Assembly: GCA_022606425.2 (NCBI GenBank)
Contig: JAHDVF020000226.1
Coordinates: forward strand, 124,001-188,000
Direction: 5' to 3'
DNA from: Lepidostoma basale
Taxonomy: Eukaryota > Arthropoda > Insecta > Trichoptera > Lepidostomatidae
DNA: 64,000 bases
Under the pieces are notes generated by a model. The model was not told where the DNA came from, made no database searches, and worked only from the letters and a program-made list of their open reading frames with translations. Below, piece by piece: positions 1,581-55,687 of this stretch; within the stretch, counting starts at the first letter, position 1, and each line of letters begins with the position of its first letter. Made by a program: the position numbers and the translations under genes.

Positions 1581-1667
1581 GACATTTAAATAGTTGATAA
1601 TGTTGAATTTCAAAGTGATTCCATCAAAAAATGGATTATCTAGTAAATATGGATGTTTGATCAGTAC

Positions 1668-1843
1668 CCGAACGGCTGACGATGGAGTTGATCCACTGCT
1701 GGTGGTTCTGCACGGTATCGCAGGCCAGAGCCAGCGGCTTCACGTTTCTCTTCTTCAGCTCCGGGGTGAGATTCCCTATGGTCATCAGCTCTGCGGTGCA
1801 CAGGACGTTGAAGTTTTTGGTCACAGAAAATAGCATACACCAC
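1668..1843 (-). CDS. peroxiredoxin-6-like (1-Cys) gene, exon 2
   Basis: Peroxiredoxin-6-type thiol peroxidase exon, reading leftward. After acceptor CGCAG at 1844-1848 it encodes WCMLFSVTKNFNVLCTAEL, then NLTPELKKRNVKPLAL, ACDTVQNHQQWIN, which fits the family pattern W.(L)FS..(D/N)FTPVCTTEL...PEF.KRNVK..ALS.D....H..W. The peroxidatic Cys codon is at 1798-1800. The usual P...T..C active-site motif is altered: Pro is Thr and Thr is Asn, so catalysis may be weakened. Joined to exon 1 (AATTC plus GTGG gives N-S-W) the frame is open for over 80 codons. The 3' end is uncertain: a GT donor at 1666-1667 is possible, but the last eight residues (after QQWIN) do not look like the family. Later exons are outside the window. 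It could be a young pseudogene. Confidence 0.75.
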
Positions 1844-2024
1844 CTGCGACCGAAGTTCGTCATTTGATCCACCATACATGTACCATAGAATATATCGGCA
1901 TACAGTGAGTTTTGATTATTTCGATTTGAATAAATTTTACTGCCCATATCATTACAACACTTTATTTCACTTATCAAAGACATGTTTCGGTTATACTCCT
2001 CTTCTACTCGCTATACTCCCTCTT

Positions 2025-2620: not shown

Positions 2621-2665
2621 TTTGTACGTTGAAAAAGGTTATGTTATAACCGAAACATGTCTGTG
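2621..2665 (+). ncRNA. H2 hammerhead-like core
   Basis: UUGAAAA, stem II GGUUAU/AUAACC, GAAAC, AUGUC, then UGUG. Stem II and the 3' core are perfect. The CUGANGA box is degenerate at two positions, so activity is doubtful. Confidence 0.5.
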
Positions 2666-2904: not shown

Positions 2905-3676
2905 ATATAAAACGGACTTTCTTCTATGTTCGCCATACTTTGTGTTGTAGGTGCTTTATTTTTCTTTTTCATTTTTATATACTTTGCATATATTATAAAA
3001 CACTAACATTAAAAAAATTACATAGACATGTTTCAGACAACCAGTCCATCTTCAGTGATACATATTATAAAGATACATATTTAAAATATTATAAAATTGT
3101 TTACATGATCTGACAGATGTTTACATGCTTACATGATTTGACAGATGTTACAAAGAAAATATCAAAATATTTGAAAAATAAATCTTTATAACATCTGTCA
3201 GATCATGTAAACAATTTTAGAATATGTTAAATATGTATCTTTATAATCTAATTTGAATTATTTTTAATGTTAGTGTTGTTTATACTCTCTTTCCGGTCTC
3301 AATCTAGCGATTGGTCTGCAGCAAGGCGACGCATCTCCTCTTCCACTCCGTTCGGTCCTCGGCAACTCTCTTCAACTCTGCATAAGAGGTGCAGCCCATA
3401 TCTCGGTAAATCTGGTCTAGGTACTCTTGGCGAGGTCGTCCTCTGCCAATCGATCCATCGACCATTCCCTCCAACACATTATGCAGGAAACATTCGTGTC
3501 GCAACACATGACCAATCCATCTTGCGCGCCTGTCCGCTATGGTGTTCAACACGTGTCTACTCTCTTCAACTCTGCTGAGAACTTCTTCATTTGTAATGTG
3601 GTCCCTCCGTGAAACATGGGCAACTCGTTTGTATATACAAAGTATATAAAAAAGAAAAAGAGAAATAAAACGAACT
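2905..3676. mobile_element. H3 foldback element split by a LINE-C tail
   Basis: Left arm (minus) includes a hammerhead-like core at 3028-3058 (CUGAAGA, stem II GGACU/GUC, AAACATGTC; GAAAC is mutated). Inverted arms continue at 3060-3135 and 3185-3245 (ACATCTGTCAGATCATGTAAACA on the right). The right core is lost. The outer end (GTATATAAAAAAGAAAAAGA) resumes after LINE-C at about 3640. The reference copy is at 30205-30500. Confidence 0.65.
3278..3632 (-). mobile_element. LINE-C 3' end
   Basis: Minus-strand frame with ADRRARWIGHVLRHECF, EGMVDGSIGRGRPRQEYLDQ and KRVAEDRTEWKRRCVALLQ-stop, a C-terminal LINE domain downstream of the reverse transcriptase. It is 5' truncated and inserted in the H3 right arm. 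The upstream part of the open frame is H3 sequence, not coding. Confidence 0.8.
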
Positions 3677-5634: not shown

Positions 5635-5708
5635 GTGAGTATAACTGCATATAAATTAACAGATTGTCAAAAATTCCTTATGACAGATTTTTTATCAGGT
5701 AGATATGA

Positions 5709-5895
5709 TTAATACGAATGAAAACGTCTGTTTTATTAAAGTTTCATTATAGTTTATGTGAATGCTATGTTTCGCCTGTCTAATCCATTTTCAAATATCA
5801 ATCAATTATATTAATACATGTATAAAACATAGGTTCTCATTCGTATTAATAATTTAATATGGAGATTTACATCATTATTCAAGAAACAATAAATA
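5709..5895. mobile_element. H4 foldback, degenerate
   Basis: Left arm: TACGAATGAAAACGTCTG, GACAGGCGAAACAT complement at 5768-5785. The right arm retains only the outer end (CATTCGTATTAAT, TTTACATCATTATTCAAGAA). The right core is lost. Confidence 0.55.
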
Positions 5896-6262: not shown

Positions 6263-6287
6263 CCAAATAGAGCACATTTTTTTGTAA

Positions 6288-6700
6288 TTAGTACGAATGA
6301 AAACGTCTGTTTTCTAGATGTATTATTATACTTTATGTGATTGACATGTTTCACCTGTCTAAGGCATTATCAACTCTCTTAACCATGCGAAACACGTAAT
6401 TTACATAAATTATAATATAACTTCTAGAATACAGGACGTTTTCATTCGTGTTCATTATTCAATCAAATATTAAAGGTTGGTCATGTCAGAAGCCGGAAGA
6501 ATCGACGTGCGTGTATGACTCGATGAACGAATGTGGAGGAAGCTAAAGAGGTATGCCAGGATAGAGTAGTGTGGCGGTCCATCCTCTCTGCCTACCCCTG
6601 CGGGGAAACGGCGTGATGGTTTGTTGTTGTTGTTGTTCATTATTTAATATGTTTTACATCATTGTTTAGGAAATTAAAAAACATTTTTTTGCGATTAATA
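6288..6700. mobile_element. H4 foldback with inserted LINE-A tail
   Basis: Left arm 6291-6375 (minus core at about 6342-6375), right arm 6380-6463 with ACCATGCGAAACACG. The outer right end (TTTTACATCATTGTTTAGG) resumes at 6649 after a LINE-A insertion. Confidence 0.65.
6464..6635 (+). mobile_element. LINE-A (TTG-tailed) insertion with target duplication
   Basis: A 172-bp 5'-truncated copy ending in GGCGTGATGG and TTG repeats. It is flanked by TTCATTATTCAAT (6451-6463) and TTCATTATTTAAT (6636-6648), a 13-bp duplication with one difference. This fixes the true 3' end of the LINE. Confidence 0.85.
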
Positions 6701-18150: not shown

Positions 18151-18151
18151 T

Positions 18152-18628
18152 TAAATAATTTATAGGAATGAAAACGATTTTGTAGAAGTTTTATCATATT
18201 TTATGGGAATGACATGTTTCGCCCTTCTAAGGCATTATCAAATTTGATGAAACTTCAACTCGTTGCAGTTTATATAGACTAGTAAATGGTTAAAAAAAAA
18301 TCATTTAGTATCCCATAACTATGCACTCATTGTCATAAAATTCATTAATGAGTTCCAAGAAACACTTTCAAATATTTCTGGACCAACCCAATTTATTATT
18401 TGTTAAAAATGTATAAAATCACATCAATTTTTGTTAATTACCATATTCTGCTCCATTTATTAGTGTATATAAACTGCAACGAGTTGAAGTTTCGTCACAT
18501 TTGATAATGCCTTAGAAGGGCGAAACATGTCATTCCCATAAAATATGATAAAACTTCTACAAAATCGTTTTCATTCCTATAAATTATTTAATATGGAGTT
18601 TTACATCATTGTTCAAGAAACAATAAAT
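18152..18628. mobile_element. H4 foldback with both hammerhead-like cores
   Basis: The left core (minus, 18205-18245) and right core (plus, 18497-18540) are near-identical inverted copies: UUGAUAAUGCCUU AGA AGGGC GAAACAUGUC AUUCCC. The arms include a TATA-like GTATATAAACTGCAACGAG upstream of each core (18270s, 18466-18490). The spacer of ~170 bp includes TTCCAAGAAACACTTTC. It ends GTTCAAGAAACAATAAAT. Confidence 0.75.
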
Positions 18629-18754
18629 TATTGCAACATTTTTTAAACACGAATATTACTTTTACACAATGGATAAGGGGCACTTTGGAAGCTTATGGTA
18701 AATAACCTTACGAAGTTCGATGCATTTTTATTCAACACACATTCGTACATTCAA

Positions 18755-19150
18755 ATGAATATGAATAAAAACGTCAGTTTTCGAGAAGTTTTATTATATT
18801 TTATGTGAATGACATGTTTCGCTTGTCTAAGGAATTATCAAGTGTAGCGAAAAATTAAAAACGCTTCTGTTTATATACAAGAGTTAAAGGAGTAGAATAC
18901 TGTAATGAAGGTTACTGACTTGGCCCAATACATTACACAAATTAAGTGGTAAATCCCAGAATATAGGAAAGAATTACCTGGAATTAGTTAAATTAGGGAA
19001 TATAATGTTTACATAGGTAATGCCTACTAAAATACGTTATATAAACCAGAAAAGGATTTCAATTTTAGGCTTAGACAGGCGAAACATGTCATTCCCATAA
19101 ATTATTAATAACGGAGTTATACATTATTGTTCATGAAACAATAAATATAA
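18755..19150. mobile_element. H4 foldback, diverged
   Basis: Minus core 18810-18846 (AAGGAATTATCA variant). Plus core 19057-19095 with GGCTTAGACAGGCGAAACAT, but the UUGAUAA box is missing. Spacer about 210 bp. The outer ends match H4. Confidence 0.65.
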
Positions 19151-19299
19151 AATTAAATATTAAATCGAGAATTTTAGTGAGATATTTCCTTAATAATAAA
19201 ATTATTAAAACATGTTAGTACACAAGCGTTTTACAATCTCTTTAATACTTTATCGCTGTTTTTAAAAAAATTCTTAAAATGGTATTAAATTAAATAAGT

Positions 19300-19459
19300 G
19301 GTAAGTAATTTGGTACGTAACACCCGACCCTTCTCAGAGGAGAAATTCTTCAAGAAACAAGGCGACATCTGTGAACTGTGCCAGAATTATTTATTCAAGG
19401 AACGGTATTCGTTTGTCACGCTAACGGGAAAAGTGCGAATTTATTTGATAAAACGATAA
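19300..19459 (+). other. unrecognised 53-codon open frame in a non-repeat island
   Basis: Encodes RPFSEEKFFKKQGDICELC and KERYSFVTLTGKVRIYL before a stop. The codon pattern and base composition differ from the flanking AT-rich repeats. No start codon and no known domain. It could be a host exon or an old transposon piece. Confidence 0.2.
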
Positions 19460-19624
19460 ATTAAGACACATAGTACACATGTCATTGCGTACCTATGTTA
19501 TAAATCTGTTTAAAATATGTTTGCTAATGGTATTATTACCACCGTGTATTTTTCTAAGAATTTTTGTTCAAACTTTTTTGTCTAACGTAGTCGTAGAAAT
19601 AATAACGGATGTAACTATCACGCC

Positions 19625-19720
19625 TGATTCTCGCTACATTTTATAATGTCTTAACGAGGTGAAACATGTCATTAATGTAGAATCTAACAAAACTTCTAGA
19701 AAAACAGAAGTTATCTTGCA
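19625..19720 (+). mobile_element. H4 right arm, solo
   Basis: TTTTATAATGTCTTAACGAG, GTGAAACATGTCATT, then AACAAAACTTCTAGAAAAAC. Stem II is weakened. Confidence 0.5.
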
Positions 19721-19844
19721 TTAATAGTTTACACAATCTTAATTTAAGGTTAAGGCGTCAACACTTTGGAATTCCATTGTAGTCTCGAATAAAATTAAAT
19801 AACTCAGTTTGTGTGGGGTCAAAACAGTGTTATTTAATTCTTAA

Positions 19845-22029: not shown

Positions 22030-22790
22030 CATTGTATTTTGAAGAGGGTTCAGAAAAAGTTTGTGAAGTATTTATTGTTTCTTGATATATATCTCCATAT
22101 TGAATATTTATAACGAATGAAAACGTCTGTTTTCTAGAAGTTTTATTATTATTTATGGGAATGACATGTTTGACCTTTCGAAGGCTTTATCAAATGTGTA
22201 ATGCCTTAGAGAGGCTAAACGTGTTATTCCCGTTAATTATAATAAAACTTCTAGAAAACAGACGTTTTCATTCGTATAAATTATTTCTGAGGTTTTGAAT
22301 ACATGAGGGAGTATGGTAGTTATCCATGGACATATCCCACGGCATTTCTTTTGGGAATGTTGGGGACCAAATCTCGGTATCTTTGAAGAGACAGGTTTCT
22401 CATAATCCATTTTTTATACTCATCAGGGGATATTTTGAGAATTCTGGGGTGTGGGTCTTTTTGTTCTTGACAAATATCCCCGACAGCGCCAGTATAGATT
22501 GTCCTCTGTGCCGGCCGCAAGAACCAATTTGCCTCTGGTAAGAGCAATCAGTCCGCTGAACATGATCATCTCGAAAATCGACGTCTTTCATATTAATGAA
22601 AACACGTTCAGAGGATAAACACTATTGACTTTAGAAAGTATTTCGTTTTCCTAAAGTTGAACCATCTCTCATGTGTTCCTTGTATTATTTATTTTACAAT
22701 ATTTAACCTGTTCTCAATAGATGTCTCAAACCTTAAATTTGTTTGTAATTTCTTTTGAGAAAATAGATTTGAACGATTGATTGATTTTCA
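22030..22790 (+). mobile_element. LINE-F C-terminal remnant split by H4
   Basis: GAGGGTTCAGAAAAAGTTTG, then after the H4 insertion TACATGAGGGAGTATGGTAG, a frame for REYGSYPWTYPTAFLLGMLG with breaks, and a 3' UTR (GTTTGTAATTTCTTTTGAGA) ending in GATTGATTGAT. A parallel copy is at 62790-63365. Confidence 0.8.
22071..22283. mobile_element. H4 foldback inserted in LINE-F
   Basis: Left end TTTATTGTTTCTTGA. The arms 22113-22190 and 22199-22275 (AACGAATGAAAACGTCTG and complement) are near-perfect. Both cores are present but eroded (AGGCTAAACGTG). Flanks TTTGTGAAGTA and TTTCTGAGGTT suggest an 11-bp target duplication (8/11). Comparison with the LINE-F copy at 62851 confirms the insertion. Confidence 0.75.
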
Positions 22791-24097: not shown

Positions 24098-24258
24098 AAA
24101 CCGTCATTCCGTTTTCCGGAAGGGTAGGCAGAGAGAATGGAACGCCTCACTACTCTATTCTGACACACCTCTAGTTTTCTTCACATTCATACAGCGAGTC
24201 GTATAGGCAAATCGATTCTTCCGACTTTAAAATTAGATGGATTTGGTCATACCATTTT
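24098..24258 (-). mobile_element. LINE-A fragment
   Basis: Minus-strand 3' coding end (complement of GCCTACCCTTCCGGAAAACG) without a clear tail, degraded. It abuts H4. Confidence 0.7.
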
Positions 24259-24260
24259 TT

Positions 24261-24553
24261 GATTCTTGAACAATGATGTAAAACTCCATATTAAATAATT
24301 AATACGAATGAAAACGTCAGTTTTCTAGAAGTTTTATTATATTTTATGGGAATGACATGTTTCGCCCTTTTTAAGGCATTATCAAATGAGACAAAACTTC
24401 AGCTCTTTGCTGTTTATATACACTAGTAAATGGTAATTAACGAAAATTGATGTGACTTTATACATTTTTAACAAATAATTATTTATGTAGATCCAGAAAT
24501 ATTGGAAAATGTTTCTTGGAACTCGTAAAGAAATTTTATGACATAGTTAGGGG
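24261..24553 (-). mobile_element. H4 left arm with internal region, single core
   Basis: Outer end TTCTTGAACAATGATGTAAA, core 24350-24388 (minus), TATA-like TGTATATAAACAGC on the minus strand near 24410, then the internal segment to TTTTATGACATAG. No inverted partner, so this shows a longer one-sided form. Confidence 0.65.
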
Positions 24554-24830
24554 ATACTAAATGGCAAGAGACTGAGAGATCACGCGAGGGACACCAGAAT
24601 AAGAGAGATATGTGAGGTTGAAGATATTATAAAACGGAACAGACAGCGAAAAAGGGACTGGTACGGTCATGTTAAAGAATGGACACCACCAGACTCCCCT
24701 ATATTGCATTGCATAATCAGCCTCATGGGACTCGTCTTAGTGCAAGACCTCCTAAAAGATGGAAGGACAGCTGGGAGTCTACCTCATAGGAGGATCAATA
24801 CTTTGGAGGACAGGCCACATAGGTCTCTAG
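24553..24830 (+). mobile_element. LINE-D 3' end
   Basis: RLRDHARDTRIREICEVEDI, then QRKRDWYGHVKEWTPPDSPI and RWKDSWES, broken. It ends near GGACAGGCCACATAGG. Confidence 0.75.
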
Positions 24831-30204: not shown

Positions 30205-30500
30205 TTCTCTTTTTCTTTTTATATACTTTGTATACTCGTATATAACACAATTTTTTTTTTTAAAATTACATAGACATGTTTCGGACAACCAGTCCTTCTT
30301 CAGTGATACGTATTATCAGTCAGATCATGTAAACAATTTTATAATATTTTAAATATGTATCACTGAAGAAGGACTGGTTGTCCGAAACATGTCTTTGTAA
30401 TTTTAATTTTTTTAATGTTAGTGTTGTATATAAAAAGTATATAAAAAAGAAAACGAGAAATAAAGTATCTACAACACAAAGTATGGCGAACTTAGAAGAA
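30205..30500. mobile_element. H3 foldback with two intact hammerhead-like cores
   Basis: Minus core 30268-30306 and plus core 30359-30395 are identical through CACUGAAGA, A, GGAC UGGUU GUCC, GAAAC, AUGUCU. Arms extend through TTTTTATATACTTTGTATA on the left and AAAAAGTATATAAAAAAGAA on the right. It ends ACAACACAAAGTATGGCGAA. Every invariant hammerhead position is kept, the best preserved pair in the window. Confidence 0.8.
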
Positions 30501-31334: not shown

Positions 31335-31625
31335 ATAAATATTTATTTCTTAAAGTTTTATTGTATTTAATGCAAGTGACATGTTATATTGCAATAAGGT
31401 TAAAAGTCTTTAAATTGAAAAAATAATGTAATCATTTTATTGTTTCGTGAACAAGGATGTAAAACTCCCAAATAAATCATTAATGCTAATGAAAACATTT
31501 GTTTTCTAAAAGTTTTATTATATTTTATGTAAACCATTTGATAATGCCTAAGACAAGCAAAGCATTTCATTCGCATAAAATATGATAAAACTTATAGAAA
31601 TCAGATGTTTTCATTCGTATTATTT
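31335..31625. mobile_element. two H4 foldback pieces
   Basis: A degenerate left arm (31335-31420), then an almost complete compact foldback 31438-31625: GTAAAACTCCC, AATGAAAACATTTG, ACCATTTGATAATGCCTAAG, ACAAGCAAAGCATTTCATTC, TTTTCATTCGTATT. Confidence 0.6.
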
Positions 31626-31667
31626 TCTTTAATTAACTTTTTTTTTTGATTATTTACTTTTATTATT

Positions 31668-35201: not shown

Positions 35202-36488
35202 TTAGGTCCTTACATATGAAATTGGCGTTTTGCCGTACTGGCAACTTTGATCTCAAATATATTCTCTCTGGTTAGGAATTCCAAATTCAAATTTATACAG
35301 CTATTTACTCAAGTATTTGTGTTTCAAAAATTATAATTCATTTGTTTTTTCCTCAATTGTTTTTTTTCTTTGCGTCACTCAGTTTACGAAATGGAAAACT
35401 TGAAATATCGCGTTATTTACGAGTACGAGTTCCACCGTGGCACCAGTGCTGCAGAAAAGGCTCGAAGGATTAATGATGTGTATGGCGACGGTGCCGCAAA
35501 AGAAAACACAGTGCGTTTTTGGTTCCAACGTTTTCGTTCTGGAAATTTCGACCTGCAGAACAAGCCCCGTGGACGGCCGGAGACCAAAGTTGATAATGAA
35601 GAATTGAAGGCTATTGCGGAAGCGGATCCATCGCAAACCACGTCCGAGTTAGCTGCAGGCTGCGGTGTTAGTGATAAAACTGTTTTAATCCACTTGAAGC
35701 AAATTGGGAAGGTGAAAAAGCTTGAAAGGTGGGTACCTCACGAATTGAGTGAAGCAAATCAACAAACGCGCGTTGACTGCTGCGTTGCATTACTCAACCG
35801 GCACAATAATAAAGGGATTTTGAATCGAATCTTTACCTGTGATGAAAAGTTGATCCTGTATGATAATCGGAAGCGCTCATCGCAATGGCTGAACCCTGCC
35901 GAACCAGCCAAACCATGCCCCAAGCGAAAATTGACTCCAAAAAAGTTACTTGTGAGCGTTTGGTGGACTAGTGCTGGTGTCGTTCACTACAGCTTTCTTA
36001 AATCTGGCCAGACGATTACGGCAGATGTCTATTGTCAGCAACTGCAAACCATGATGGAAAAGCTAGCTGCTAAACAACCGAGGCTGGTTAATCGCTCTAG
36101 GCCACTGCTGCTTATGATAACGCTAGACCACACACTGCACAACAGACGGCTACCAAATTAGAATAGATTCAATTGGAATGTCTAAGACATCCACCGTACT
36201 CTCCGGACCTTGCCCCAACAGATTACTATTTTTTTCGAAATTTGGATAACTTCTTGCAAGGGAAAAAATTCAACTCCGATGGGGCAGTCCAAACCGACTT
36301 CAAAGATTTTATTGATTCCCGTCCGAATGTTTTTTTTTAGTAAAGGGATCGATAAACTACCTATGAGATGGCAAAAGTGCATAGATAGCAATGGTACATA
36401 CTTTGATTAAATAAATATATTATATTTAAAAAAATTCAACTTTATGATCCTCCCATACAAAACGCTAATTTCATATGTAAGGACCTAA
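35202..36488 (+). mobile_element. mariner element, full length (Hsmar1/cecropia-like)
   Basis: Terminal repeats TTAGGTCCTTACATATGAAA and its complement at the right end (TTTCATATGTAAGGACCTAA), TA flanks at 35200-35201 and 36489-36490. 1287 bp, the normal length. Both ends are well preserved, so it could still be mobilised in trans. Confidence 0.92.
35391..36410 (+). pseudogene. mariner transposase, nearly complete but frameshifted
   Basis: Starts MENLKYRVIYEYEFHRG with two helix-turn-helix domains (VRFWFQRFRSGNFDL; KAIAEADPSQTTSELA), the linker WVPHELSE, first Asp in IFTCDEKLILYDNRK, and VSVWWTSAGVVHYSFLKSG. A one-base deletion near 36112 breaks the frame at LLL.DNARPHTAQQ (second Asp). In the shifted frame a TAG precedes RHPPYSPDLAPTDYYFF (third Asp), giving DD34D spacing, and the end is LPMRWQKCIDSNGTYFD-stop. 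Other stops lie near 36340. CDEKW is CDEKL. Inactive, but only a few lesions from intact. The start ATG at 35391 is preferred over an upstream TTG. Confidence 0.9.
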
Positions 36489-37069: not shown

Positions 37070-37425
37070 TCTTGAACAATGATGTAAAACCATTGTTCAA
37101 TTATTTTGGTAGGTCCAGAAATATTGAAGAGTGTTTCTTGGAATTCGTTAAGAAATTTTATGACAAATAATTATTTGTTAAAAATGTATAAAGTCACATC
37201 AACTTTCGTTAATTACCATATTCTGCTCCATTTACTAGTGTATATAAATTGCAACGAGTTGAATTTTCGTCACATTTGATAATGCCTTAGAAGGGCGAAA
37301 CATGTCATTCCCAAAAATATAATATAACTTCTAGAAAACTGACGTTTTCACTCGTATTAATTATGTCATTCCCATAAAATATAATAAAACTTCTAGAAAA
37401 CTGACGTTTTCATTCGTATTAAGTA
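37070..37425 (+). mobile_element. H4, one-sided copy with duplicated 3' segment
   Basis: Internal region from 37108, TATA-like GTATATAAATTGCAACGAG (37242-37260), core 37271-37308 (UUGAUAA, U, GCCUU AGA AGGGC, GAAACAUGUC), then the 3' segment to CACTCGTATTAATT. A second 3' segment (37362-37423) starts at ATGTCATTCCC, 5 nt before the predicted cleavage site. Confidence 0.7.
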
Positions 37426-41891: not shown

Positions 41892-42540
<649 letters not shown>

Positions 42541-45411: not shown

Positions 45412-45635
45412 TAATTAATAAATACGAATGAAATCGTCTGTTTTCAAAAAGTTTTATTATAATATATGTGAATGTCATGTTTCGCCTGTCTAAAGTAACA
45501 TCAAATGTAATAAAATATTTGATAATGCCTTAGACAGGCGAAACAAATCATAATTATGTTACAATAAAACTTCTAGAAAACAGACGGTATCATTCGTATT
45601 AATGATTTAATATGAATTTTTACATCATTATTACA
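45412..45635. mobile_element. H4 foldback, compact, both cores
   Basis: Minus core 45472-45508, plus core 45518-45550 (UUUGAUAAUGCCUUAGACAG, GCGAAACAAAUC) separated by about 10 bp. Arms ATACGAATGAAATCGTCTG and complement. Outer right end TTTTTACATCATTATTAC. Confidence 0.7.
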
Positions 45636-45689
45636 AATTCGGTTAAATGTTGTATATTATATAAGCTGTGAGTGGAAAGAGATTTTTAT

Positions 45690-48404: not shown

Positions 48405-48745
48405 GGTCAGTTCAAACTTTATTGATAAACTTAAGCCGTTAACACTGGAATTCCGCAACGACGAATTTTTTTTCAGAATTAAAACACAAATTTTTCCAAT
48501 TTTATTTATATTTTTTTCGACATGTTTCGAAGGCTTTTCAACCTCATCATCGGGAGAACGATATAAACTAGTTTAAGTGAATTAATTTTTCTCGACATGT
48601 TTCGAAGTATTCACGCCTTCATCATTGGGAGAACGATATATACTAATTATTACCGTTCTTCCGATGACGAAGGTGTAAATCCTTCAAAACGTGTCGAAAA
48701 AAATAAACTGAAAAGTGGAAAAATAAGGGTTTTAAATAAATTCGT
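48405..48745. mobile_element. H6 element with three hammerhead-like cores
   Basis: Minus cores 48517-48555 and 48592-48632 are tandem, about 76 bp apart (both CGAAACATGTCGA in reverse). A plus core 48652-48696 (CGAUGAC, GAAGG..CCUUC, AAAAC, GUGUCG) faces them. Outer left end AACTTAAGCCGTTAACACTG. Tandem plus inverted in one locus. Confidence 0.65.
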
Positions 48746-53736: not shown

Positions 53737-53790
53737 AACACAAACATGTTTCGGACACAGAAGCCCTTCATCATTGTAGTTAATTAAATA
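53737..53790 (-). ncRNA. H7-like hammerhead core
   Basis: Minus strand AUGAUGA, A, GGGC UUCUGU GUCC, GAAAC, AUGUUUG. The cleavage triplet GUC is GUU. It lies beside the H8 foldback. Confidence 0.55.
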
Positions 53791-55337: not shown

Positions 55338-55523
55338 TATTTATTCTTTCTTGAACAATGATGTAAAACTCCATGTTAAATAATGAATACGGATGAAAAC
55401 GTCTGTTTAATACTAGTTTTATTATATTTTATGACATTTGATAATGCCTTAGACAGACGAAAGGTGTCATTCACATAAAATATAATAAAATTTCTAGAAA
55501 ACGGACGTTTTCATTGGTATTAA
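55338..55523. mobile_element. H4, complete insertion with perfect 13-bp duplication
   Basis: Flanked by GTGTTTATCATCA at 55325-55337 and 55524-55536. Starts ATATTTATTCTTTCTTGAAC and ends TTTTCATTGGTATTAA. The left arm lacks the ribozyme core. The right core reads UUUGAUAAUGCCUUAGACAG, ACGAAAGGUGUC. This defines the mobile unit as 186 bp, asymmetric at its ends. Confidence 0.85.
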
Positions 55524-55687
55524 GTGTTTATCATCAGTTACAATGTCAACTGATTATATAGTGTATGGTACATGAAATAATCTTGTACTCAAATAAGTGT
55601 AAAAATATCATTAATTAAATTCTTAAAGCCTTTATTCAATATTTAGATCAATAATACATGCTGGTTATGTATAATTAAAAGTCACTT

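What the first reader, a model, noticed from the sequence alone, without database searches (positions are those of the whole stretch)
18152..18628. Family H4: foldback elements carrying two outward-reading hammerhead-like ribozymes
About fifteen H4 copies share a hammerhead-like core (UUGAUAA, N, stem II, GAAA, CAUG palindrome, UC). Most have it twice, in inverted arms that read outward from the centre. Hammerheads with minimal, palindromic stem III are known from terminal repeats of Penelope-like elements, but here no Penelope reverse transcriptase or GIY-YIG domain is visible, so these look like a small non-autonomous hammerhead foldback class.
Basis: partly seen in the sequence, partly recalled or inferred. 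Interest (0 to 1): 0.85.

Follow-up and report, generated by a model that had tools for sequence, protein, structure and literature searches.

The report
Truncated Penelope insertions with paired hammerheads
The repeats are broken-off ends of an ordinary Penelope-type jumping gene, inserted as head-to-head pairs that can carry a hammerhead-ribozyme motif on each side; they are a new family of a known kind, but they preserve an unusually clear record of how such insertions are made.

Summary
The arms at 18151-18290 and 18453-18591 are a 97% inverted repeat, each with an outward-reading minimal type-I hammerhead motif (UUGAUAA-U-stem II-GAAA-CAUG-UC). Over 21 motifs in ten hand-sorted groups from this genome, stem I, stem II and the core pair C3-G8 covary; H4 has U3-A8, a natural variant already in print. 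H4 is not a class without a Penelope partner: its body, extended in the window's own genome (769 Mb), reaches a GIY-YIG C-terminus, and five loci carry GIY-YIG, then 336-704 nt, then the H4 core. A relative with an 831-aa RT/GIY-YIG frame (71% identical in GIY-YIG) also has a U3-A8 core, and its first codons, ATGGAGTTTTAC, lie in the H4 tail. H4 copies are 5'-truncated insertions in the inverted-pLTR architecture known for Penelope elements. Of 33 head-to-head pairs 30 have exactly one tail, 3 none, 0 two; 11 of 30 show exact target duplications of 9-14 nt. 23 of 64 copy starts fall at -6..0 before the core, where a TATA box predicts the mRNA start. I infer two cDNAs, one per target strand, from two start sites. 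Ribozyme activity is untested.

The parts
18157..18629 (.). H4 head-to-head insertion (short end left, tailed end right) inside an older LINE-like repeat
   Evidence: arms; ends, +/- 1 base; homology of the left flank to other repeat copies stops at the element; no target duplication of 8 nt or more found
18151..18290 (-). left arm: pLTR copy reading leftward, short end
18211..18241 (-). hammerhead core UUGAUAA-U-GCCUUAGAAGGGC-GAAACAUGUC; predicted cleavage after 18211 (reading -)
18291..18452 (+). centre: 5'-truncated body (upstream of the pLTR) of the right-hand copy
   Evidence: window 18300-18628 aligns to L032 body, arm and tail at 91%
18466..18473 (+). TATATAAA, 31 nt upstream of A18497, the predicted transcript start
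   Evidence: sequence; position as in other H4 copies; promoter function inferred
18453..18591 (+). right arm: pLTR copy reading rightward
18501..18531 (+). hammerhead core; predicted cleavage after 18531
18587..18629 (+). 42-43 nt tail TTTAATATGGAGTTTTAC..., containing the first codons (M-E-F-Y) of the relative's ORF
5706..5895 (.). H4 head-to-head pair, one tail (right), 11-bp duplication GGTAGATATGA
6285..6457 (.). H4 head-to-head pair, no tail detected
18753..19727 (.). two outward H4 arms 975 nt apart, no tail detected; may be two separate insertions
   Evidence: not mapped
22069..22283 (.). compact H4 pair, one tail (left)
24254..24563 (-). H4 copy with body, core at 24385-24354 (-)
31434..31626 (.). 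compact H4 pair, one tail (left)
37099..37425 (.). H4 copy with core at 37276-37306 (+)
45416..45636 (.). compact H4 pair, both cores, diverged tail right
55338..55526 (.). compact H4 pair, one tail (left), 13-bp duplication GTGTTTATCATCA

Best explanation
H4 is the 5'-truncated debris of a GIY-YIG Penelope-like retrotransposon. The Penelope mRNA begins 3-4 nt before a minimal type-I hammerhead that sits in its pseudo-LTR (pLTR). At a new site both target strands are cut about 9-14 bp apart; each 3' end primes its own cDNA on element RNA, one from the 'tail' start site inside the beginning of the ORF, the other from a start site about 43 nt upstream. The cDNAs stop early or run off the RNA 5' end and are joined head-to-head. 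This gives foldback inserts with outward-reading hammerheads, one tail and a target duplication. Shown here: the Penelope link, truncation, the one-tail pattern, duplications in part of the pairs, covarying hammerhead pairs. Inferred: two independent cDNAs, the mRNA start, and any RNA cleavage. Because the two hammerheads of a pair lie on opposite strands they cannot form one dimer in one sense transcript; the palindromic stem III, if used, pairs tandem units or separate RNAs.
For: Body extends into a GIY-YIG C-terminus (Pfam PF01541 E 7e-4 and 1.5e-4, scores just under its cut-off; 43-48% identical over 77-100 aa to the GIY-YIG of the largest other group of loci, best E about 4e-21). GIY-YIG followed by an H4 core in the four loci followed downstream of six fetched (C353, C517, C228, C963) and in L013 (cores 1-2 mismatches in four, 8 with an indel in C963; the L013 GIY-YIG piece is degenerate, 60%). 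Relative with an 831-aa frame, RVT_1 E 9.5e-14 plus GIY-YIG E 4.3e-4 (under cut-off), in a 2,954-bp direct repeat with an inverted junction nearby, with a UUGAAAA hammerhead and ORF start ATGGAGTTTTAC, which also stands in the H4 tail. Of the listed RT relatives, those named from Lepidoptera are 43-49% identical. One tail in 30, none in 3, two in 0 of 33 pairs (the one end too near a stretch edge was checked; P 5.6e-7 if ends were independent). Exact duplications of 9 nt or more in 11 of 30 tailed pairs against 1.1% of shuffled pairings. Covariation: 86.5% of cells paired against 61.3% shuffled, 0/500; score 0.615 against 0.065-0.095 when slid. 23 of 64 copy starts at -6..0, with TATA at -35/-34 in H4 copies and the relative. 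In vitro an anole Penelope protein cuts and extends both strands, and its tail lies between two RT start sites (PMC11167929).
Against: No RT or full ORF of H4's own subfamily was recovered; the full relative is 71% identical in GIY-YIG. 16 of 30 tailed pairs show no duplication of 8 nt or more, the element of the finding among them. Arms within a pair are only slightly more alike (90.5%) than arms of different pairs (86.7%), and the partner is the closest arm in 4 of the 15 pairs given to that test. The anole protein showed no start-site difference between strands (PMC11167929). In one search one of five measures, pairs with a change on both sides (9), was reached by 100 of 500 shuffles. The relative's RNA does not fold better than shuffles (z 0.25; the H4 RNA z -2.06). 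TATA at this place was not found in the other hammerhead groups.
Confidence: 0.85

Rival explanations
1. A small non-autonomous foldback family that is copied as a unit by Penelope enzymes: a few master foldbacks are transcribed and reinserted whole.
For: 16 of 32 pairs have a copy starting at -6..0, and two window pairs (31477, 55381) share nearly the same +36/-3 or -4 structure with the tail on the same copy.
Against: The other 16 pairs all have different start coordinates, and the pairs with both starts near -4 have different junction letters; many copies continue into Penelope sequence upstream, GIY-YIG included.
Confidence: 0.15
2. The inverted arms arise by self-priming (snap-back) of one Penelope cDNA, as proposed for bdelloid rotifer elements.
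For: PMC3846280 (passages) infers self-priming from palindromes at inverted junctions; some H4 junctions are near-palindromic (L094, win 22105).
Against: Snap-back copying should give both ends the same terminus, yet 30 of 33 pairs are discordant for the tail; many junctions are asymmetric.
Confidence: 0.2
3. The motif is a hairpin with another role (promoter or protein-binding element) and never cleaves.
For: No cleavage data; no intramolecular stem III; one extra base between A9 and stem II in 41 of 45 motifs; Rfam silent; the anole Penelope hammerhead needs protein to cleave and is not needed for insertion in vitro (PMC11167929).
Against: C3-G8 changes to U3-A8 jointly, stems covary, and the palindrome keeps A15.1...U16.1 while its middle differs between groups, which a plain hairpin does not need. 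The motif search itself required such a palindrome, so part of this is by construction.
Confidence: 0.15
4. A MITE or foldback DNA transposon.
For: Long inverted repeats and target duplications.
Against: Ends differ (one tail), inner ends are variably truncated, and the body is linked to GIY-YIG.
Confidence: 0.02

Closest known systems
Endonuclease-bearing Penelope elements with inverted pLTRs (Adineta vaga, PMC3846280; passages seen)
   Same: Head-to-head inverted pLTRs, optional 31-bp tail on one of them, 8-10 bp duplications, pLTR plus tail includes the ORF start, TATA box in the pLTR
   Different: Tail here 42-43 nt, duplications 9-14 nt where found, no coding part in the window copies, thousands of cores in the genome
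Poseidon of Anolis (PAc, PMC11167929; main text seen)
   Same: Hammerhead with stems I and II near the ORF start; tail lies between two RT start sites; both target strands cut and extended
   Different: PAc core is C3-G8, here U3-A8; the PAc ORF starts at stem II, in the H4 relative it starts 117 nt after the core start
Natural U3-A8 hammerheads (PMC3088659; passages seen)
   Same: C3-G8 replaced by U3-A8
   Different: Here it marks H4 and its full relative, with an extra base after A9
Animal retrozymes (PMC7229834; abstract and two sections seen)
   Same: Short non-coding repeats with type-I hammerheads
   Different: Retrozymes are direct tandem repeats of 150-450 bp; H4 is mostly head-to-head, truncated, and linked to GIY-YIG

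Membership tests
Penelope-like element | GIY-YIG endonuclease at the C-terminus of the element ORF | tested here: met
   GIY-YIG C-terminus upstream of H4 body and core in 5 loci; Pfam scores 20.3 and 22.4 against cut-off 22.6
Penelope-like element | Reverse transcriptase in the same ORF | tested here: inconclusive
   not recovered for H4's own subfamily; present in the 71%-identical relative (RVT_1 E 9.5e-14)
Penelope-like element | Direct or inverted pLTRs, tail on one end | tested here: met
   33 pairs, 30 with exactly one tail; direct repeat plus inverted junction of the relative
Penelope-like element | Short target-site duplications, 5' truncation | tested here: met
   9 nt or more in 11 of 30 (null 1.1%), none of 8 or more in 16; variable copy starts
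Hammerhead ribozyme (type I) | Core CUGANGA / GAAA / UH | tested here: met
   with the U3-A8 variant known from PMC3088659
Hammerhead ribozyme (type I) | Stems I and II | tested here: met
   stem II 95.2%, stem I 65.5% of cells paired, with changes on both sides; H4's own proximal stem I is short (2-3 bp)
Hammerhead ribozyme (type I) | Intramolecular stem III | tested here: not met
   only a 6-nt palindrome (ACATGT); PMC6155905 (passages) says Penelope hammerheads usually lack helix III
Hammerhead ribozyme (type I) | Match to an Rfam hammerhead model | tested here: not met
   same silence on six GIY-YIG loci that have the motif
Hammerhead ribozyme (type I) | Self-cleavage | not testable with these tools
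   needs transcription in vitro
Animal retrozyme | Direct tandem repeats of 150-450 bp | tested here: not met
   neighbouring arms within 1.3 kb: -+ 29, +- 10, ++ 4, -- 4
DNA foldback element / MITE | Identical terminal inverted repeats as element ends | tested here: not met
   ends discordant for the tail in 30 of 33

The most novel reading that the evidence does not exclude
Every head-to-head Penelope insertion of this lineage is the product of two reverse transcriptions, one per target strand, started at two different fixed sites, so that exactly one end has the tail; and the compact foldbacks are run-off cDNAs of an mRNA whose 5' end lies 3-4 nt before a U3-A8 hammerhead, so the ribozyme occupies the extreme 5' end of Penelope mRNA and could remove its own cap end.
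Probability: 0.45. Interest if true: 0.55.

Novelty: new member of a known kind. Interest (0 to 1): 0.4.

Why it matters
The thing itself is a new Penelope family with a known architecture and a known hammerhead variant. Its value is as data: with 5,456 exact cores in one genome, the paired ends record cut spacing, both RT start sites and RNA 5' ends of Penelope integration, a mechanism that PMC11167929 still outlines from one in vitro system. The one-tail pattern is a simple prediction that can be tested there.

Tried and rejected
Rfam scans of the window and of the core region gave no hammerhead; set aside as evidence after the control on GIY-YIG loci. The 2,792-bp tandem at C650 looked like an autonomous unit but is a larger repeat holding one H4 copy with its right core lost. 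Pfam on 10 of the 39 window ORFs found mariner and AhpC/TSA pieces but no RT or GIY-YIG. tblastn of three GIY-YIG pieces on the window: best E 0.44. Empty-site test for the element of the finding: left border clear, right side unclear. Alignment A2 misplaced one group and was replaced by A3 without that group. A TATA box as a feature of all hammerhead groups: not supported. Co-birth of the two arms judged by identity: weak. Reading the copy start at -4 as the product of cleavage after the GUC that precedes it in one subfamily was considered and dropped, since other copies lack GUC there.

Full report
1. What is there. At 18151-18591 the window has a 139-nt inverted repeat, 97% complementary, with 163 nt between the arms. 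Each arm holds the same 31-nt core, UUGAUAA-U-GCCUUAGAAGGGC-GAAACAUGUC, at 18501-18531 (+) and 18241-18211 (-), both reading outward. Related cores occur at 21 places in the window at up to 11 of 31 mismatches. In the window's own genome (G000, 768.8 Mb; the window is C810:124001-188000) the core with two free positions occurs 5,456 times, 2,700 on one strand and 2,756 on the other.

2. Is it a hammerhead? Motifs of the same plan but different sequence occur in the window and in loci with GIY-YIG. In 274 kb of window and fetched loci (enriched by choice) there were 45, against 3 in two Markov-resampled copies; positions 3 and 8 were C/G in 19, T/A in 18 (nearly all H4) and other in 8. On an alignment of 21 motifs in ten groups (18 non-H4, 3 H4; picked by hand from earlier outputs, so not a full sample), the proposed pairs hold in 86.5% of cells against 61.3% in shuffles (0 of 500), covariation 0.615 against 0.182 shuffled and 0.065-0.095 when partners are slid; the count of pairs with a change on both sides (9) was reached by 100 of 500 shuffles, further pair types (24) by 9 of 500. 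The core pair 3-8 is C-G in 16, U-A in 4, other in 1 of the 21. U3-A8 is a natural variant already in print, with activity shown earlier in vitro (PMC3088659, passages). Stem III is only a palindrome: ACATGT, ACAGCTGT, ACCGGT, ACTAGT or ACAAATTTGT. 41 of 45 motifs have one extra base between A9 and stem II; I recall, from no call, an extra base at this place in a viroid hammerhead. A covariance model made from 12 non-H4 motifs finds the H4 cores of the finding at E 4.5e-4 and 0.0048, and those at 45513, 37270 and 24351 at 0.0045-0.0091 (calibration rough). Rfam finds none in the window, nor in six GIY-YIG loci that have the motif. Cleavage is untested.

3. What carries it. Twenty more copies, from the best of 43 listed matches, showed a sense unit that reads body, hammerhead, then ...CATTCSTATTAATTA, and in part of the copies a further tail TTTAATATGGAGTTTTACATCATTGTTCAAGAAACAATAAAT. 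Walking the body upstream with eight longer stretches, two genome searches and six stretches reached a GIY-YIG C-terminus (Pfam E 7e-4 and 1.5e-4; 43-48% identical over 77-100 aa to the largest other group of GIY-YIG loci). Four of the six loci were followed downstream; the H4 core follows the aligned GIY-YIG end by 443, 438, 704 and 450 nt in C353, C517, C228 and C963, and by 336 nt in L013 (the C963 core has 8 mismatches with an indel, the L013 GIY-YIG piece is degenerate). The other two loci were not followed. A genome search with this 107-aa piece (150 of 3,864 candidates scored) lists, besides close and broken copies, relatives at 65-71% identity with open frames of 829-861 aa. One array (C308) has a 2,954-bp direct repeat and a head-to-head junction; its 831-aa frame has RVT_1 and, just under the cut-off, GIY-YIG; its hammerhead is UUGAAAA (also U3-A8), and its first codons ATGGAGTTTTAC stand also in the H4 tail, 6 nt from the tail's start. 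Among the 120 listed of 535 relatives of its RT/GIY-YIG part, those named from Lepidoptera are 43-49% identical; this hints at, but does not prove, a moth or butterfly.

4. Ends. In 303 kb (81 sources after dropping 16 overlapping loci) 114 arms reach the short end; 33 non-redundant head-to-head pairs were found; 30 have exactly one tail, 3 none, none two. One end (L080) lay too near the edge of its stretch; with the missing letters fetched it proved short, and no other end was near an edge. If ends were independent the chance of 30 or more is 5.6e-7, of no double 4.8e-4; shared descent of some pairs would weaken these figures. An earlier, partly redundant count gave 29 pairs: 21 one-tail, 8 none, 0 two. 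For the 30 tailed pairs an exact target duplication of at least 9 nt is found in 11 (9-14 nt), at least 8 in 14; shuffled pairings give 1.1% and 3.8%. The element of the finding has none; its left border interrupts a LINE-like repeat, its right border could not be placed.

5. Inner ends. For 32 of the 33 pairs the copy starts were mapped on the unit (reference L032). 23 of 64 starts lie at -6..0, just before the core; the rest are spread from -510 to +66, with a minor group of 5 at +36..+41. In H4 copies with intact upstream sequence a TATATAAA lies at -35, that is 31 nt before A(-4) in TCACAT; in the relative TATAAGG lies 31 nt before the A of TTCAGT. Boxes at -37..-32 occur in 18 of 50 motifs (background 2.3%), all 18 in H4 or the relative's group; the other groups lack it. 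I read -4 as the mRNA start. A TATA box and an initiator-like TCACT in the pLTR were noted for a rotifer element (PMC3846280, passages).

6. How it works. PMC11167929 (main text) shows for an anole Penelope that both target strands are cut and extended, that RT starts inside the RNA, and that the tail is the stretch between two start sites. PMC3846280 describes inverted head-to-head pLTRs with an optional 31-bp tail on one and 8-10 bp duplications, and proposes self-priming. H4 fits the architecture. Tail discordance argues against simple snap-back copying and for two initiations at different sites; the start cluster at -4 suggests that compact foldbacks are cDNAs that ran off the mRNA 5' end. 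The two hammerheads of a pair lie on opposite strands, so they look like a by-product of insertion, not a working dimer. Against: the anole protein showed no strand difference in start site; arms of a pair are only slightly more alike than arms of different pairs (90.5% against 86.7%; partner closest in 4 of 15, the 15 being the pairs with long arms on both sides among the 33).

7. Known or new. The listings of searches showed no title or abstract about this family, about Penelope hammerheads in Lepidoptera, or about counts of tails per pair; only titles, abstract openings and the passages or sections named were seen, and the 2014 Penelope-hammerhead paper and the 2021 Penelope clade paper are not held. 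That one of two inverted pLTRs may bear a tail is in print (PMC3846280). Verdict: a new Penelope family of a known kind, with a known core variant and unusually informative insertion ends.

Noticed in passing
window 1193, 15329, 34474 (+), 42925, 47402 (-): Second hammerhead group CTGAYGA-T-...-GAAAcagCTGTY; the first three keep an 8-nt palindrome; also in GIY-YIG locus L053.
   Followed up: partly
window 30267-30399 and 3019-3061: Third group CTGAAGA-...-GAAACATGTC; 30303 (-) and 30363 (+) form another head-to-head pair.
   Followed up: no
window 2629-2661: TTGAAAA hammerhead motif, another U3-A8 case outside H4.
   Followed up: partly
window 53737-53780 (-), 48514-48559 and 48589-48634 (-): Further covariance-model hits (E 1.7e-9, 1.6e-5 twice); the last two lie 75 nt apart.
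   Followed up: no
G000 C308:2096136-2107994, C502, C652, C999: Groups of Penelope copies in direct and inverted order, several with open frames of 829-861 aa; head-to-head junction in L079 with a 4-nt overlap.
   Followed up: partly
L067 881-1267: Insert with inverted ends TCGTCACCTGAGAGTAAGAAGG... inside an H4 copy; the whole 2,792-bp unit is tandemly repeated at C650.
   Followed up: no
window 35337-36161 (+): Mariner-type transposase fragment, HTH_48 and Transposase_1.
   Followed up: no
window 1636-2010 (-): AhpC/TSA-like coding piece.
   Followed up: no
G000 C102:22626, C729:135548: GIY-YIG hits in open frames of 623 and 621 aa; the C102 one resembles UvrC (recalled), so these contigs may be bacterial.
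   Followed up: no
window about 42044-42270: Long (TA)n microsatellite.
   Followed up: no
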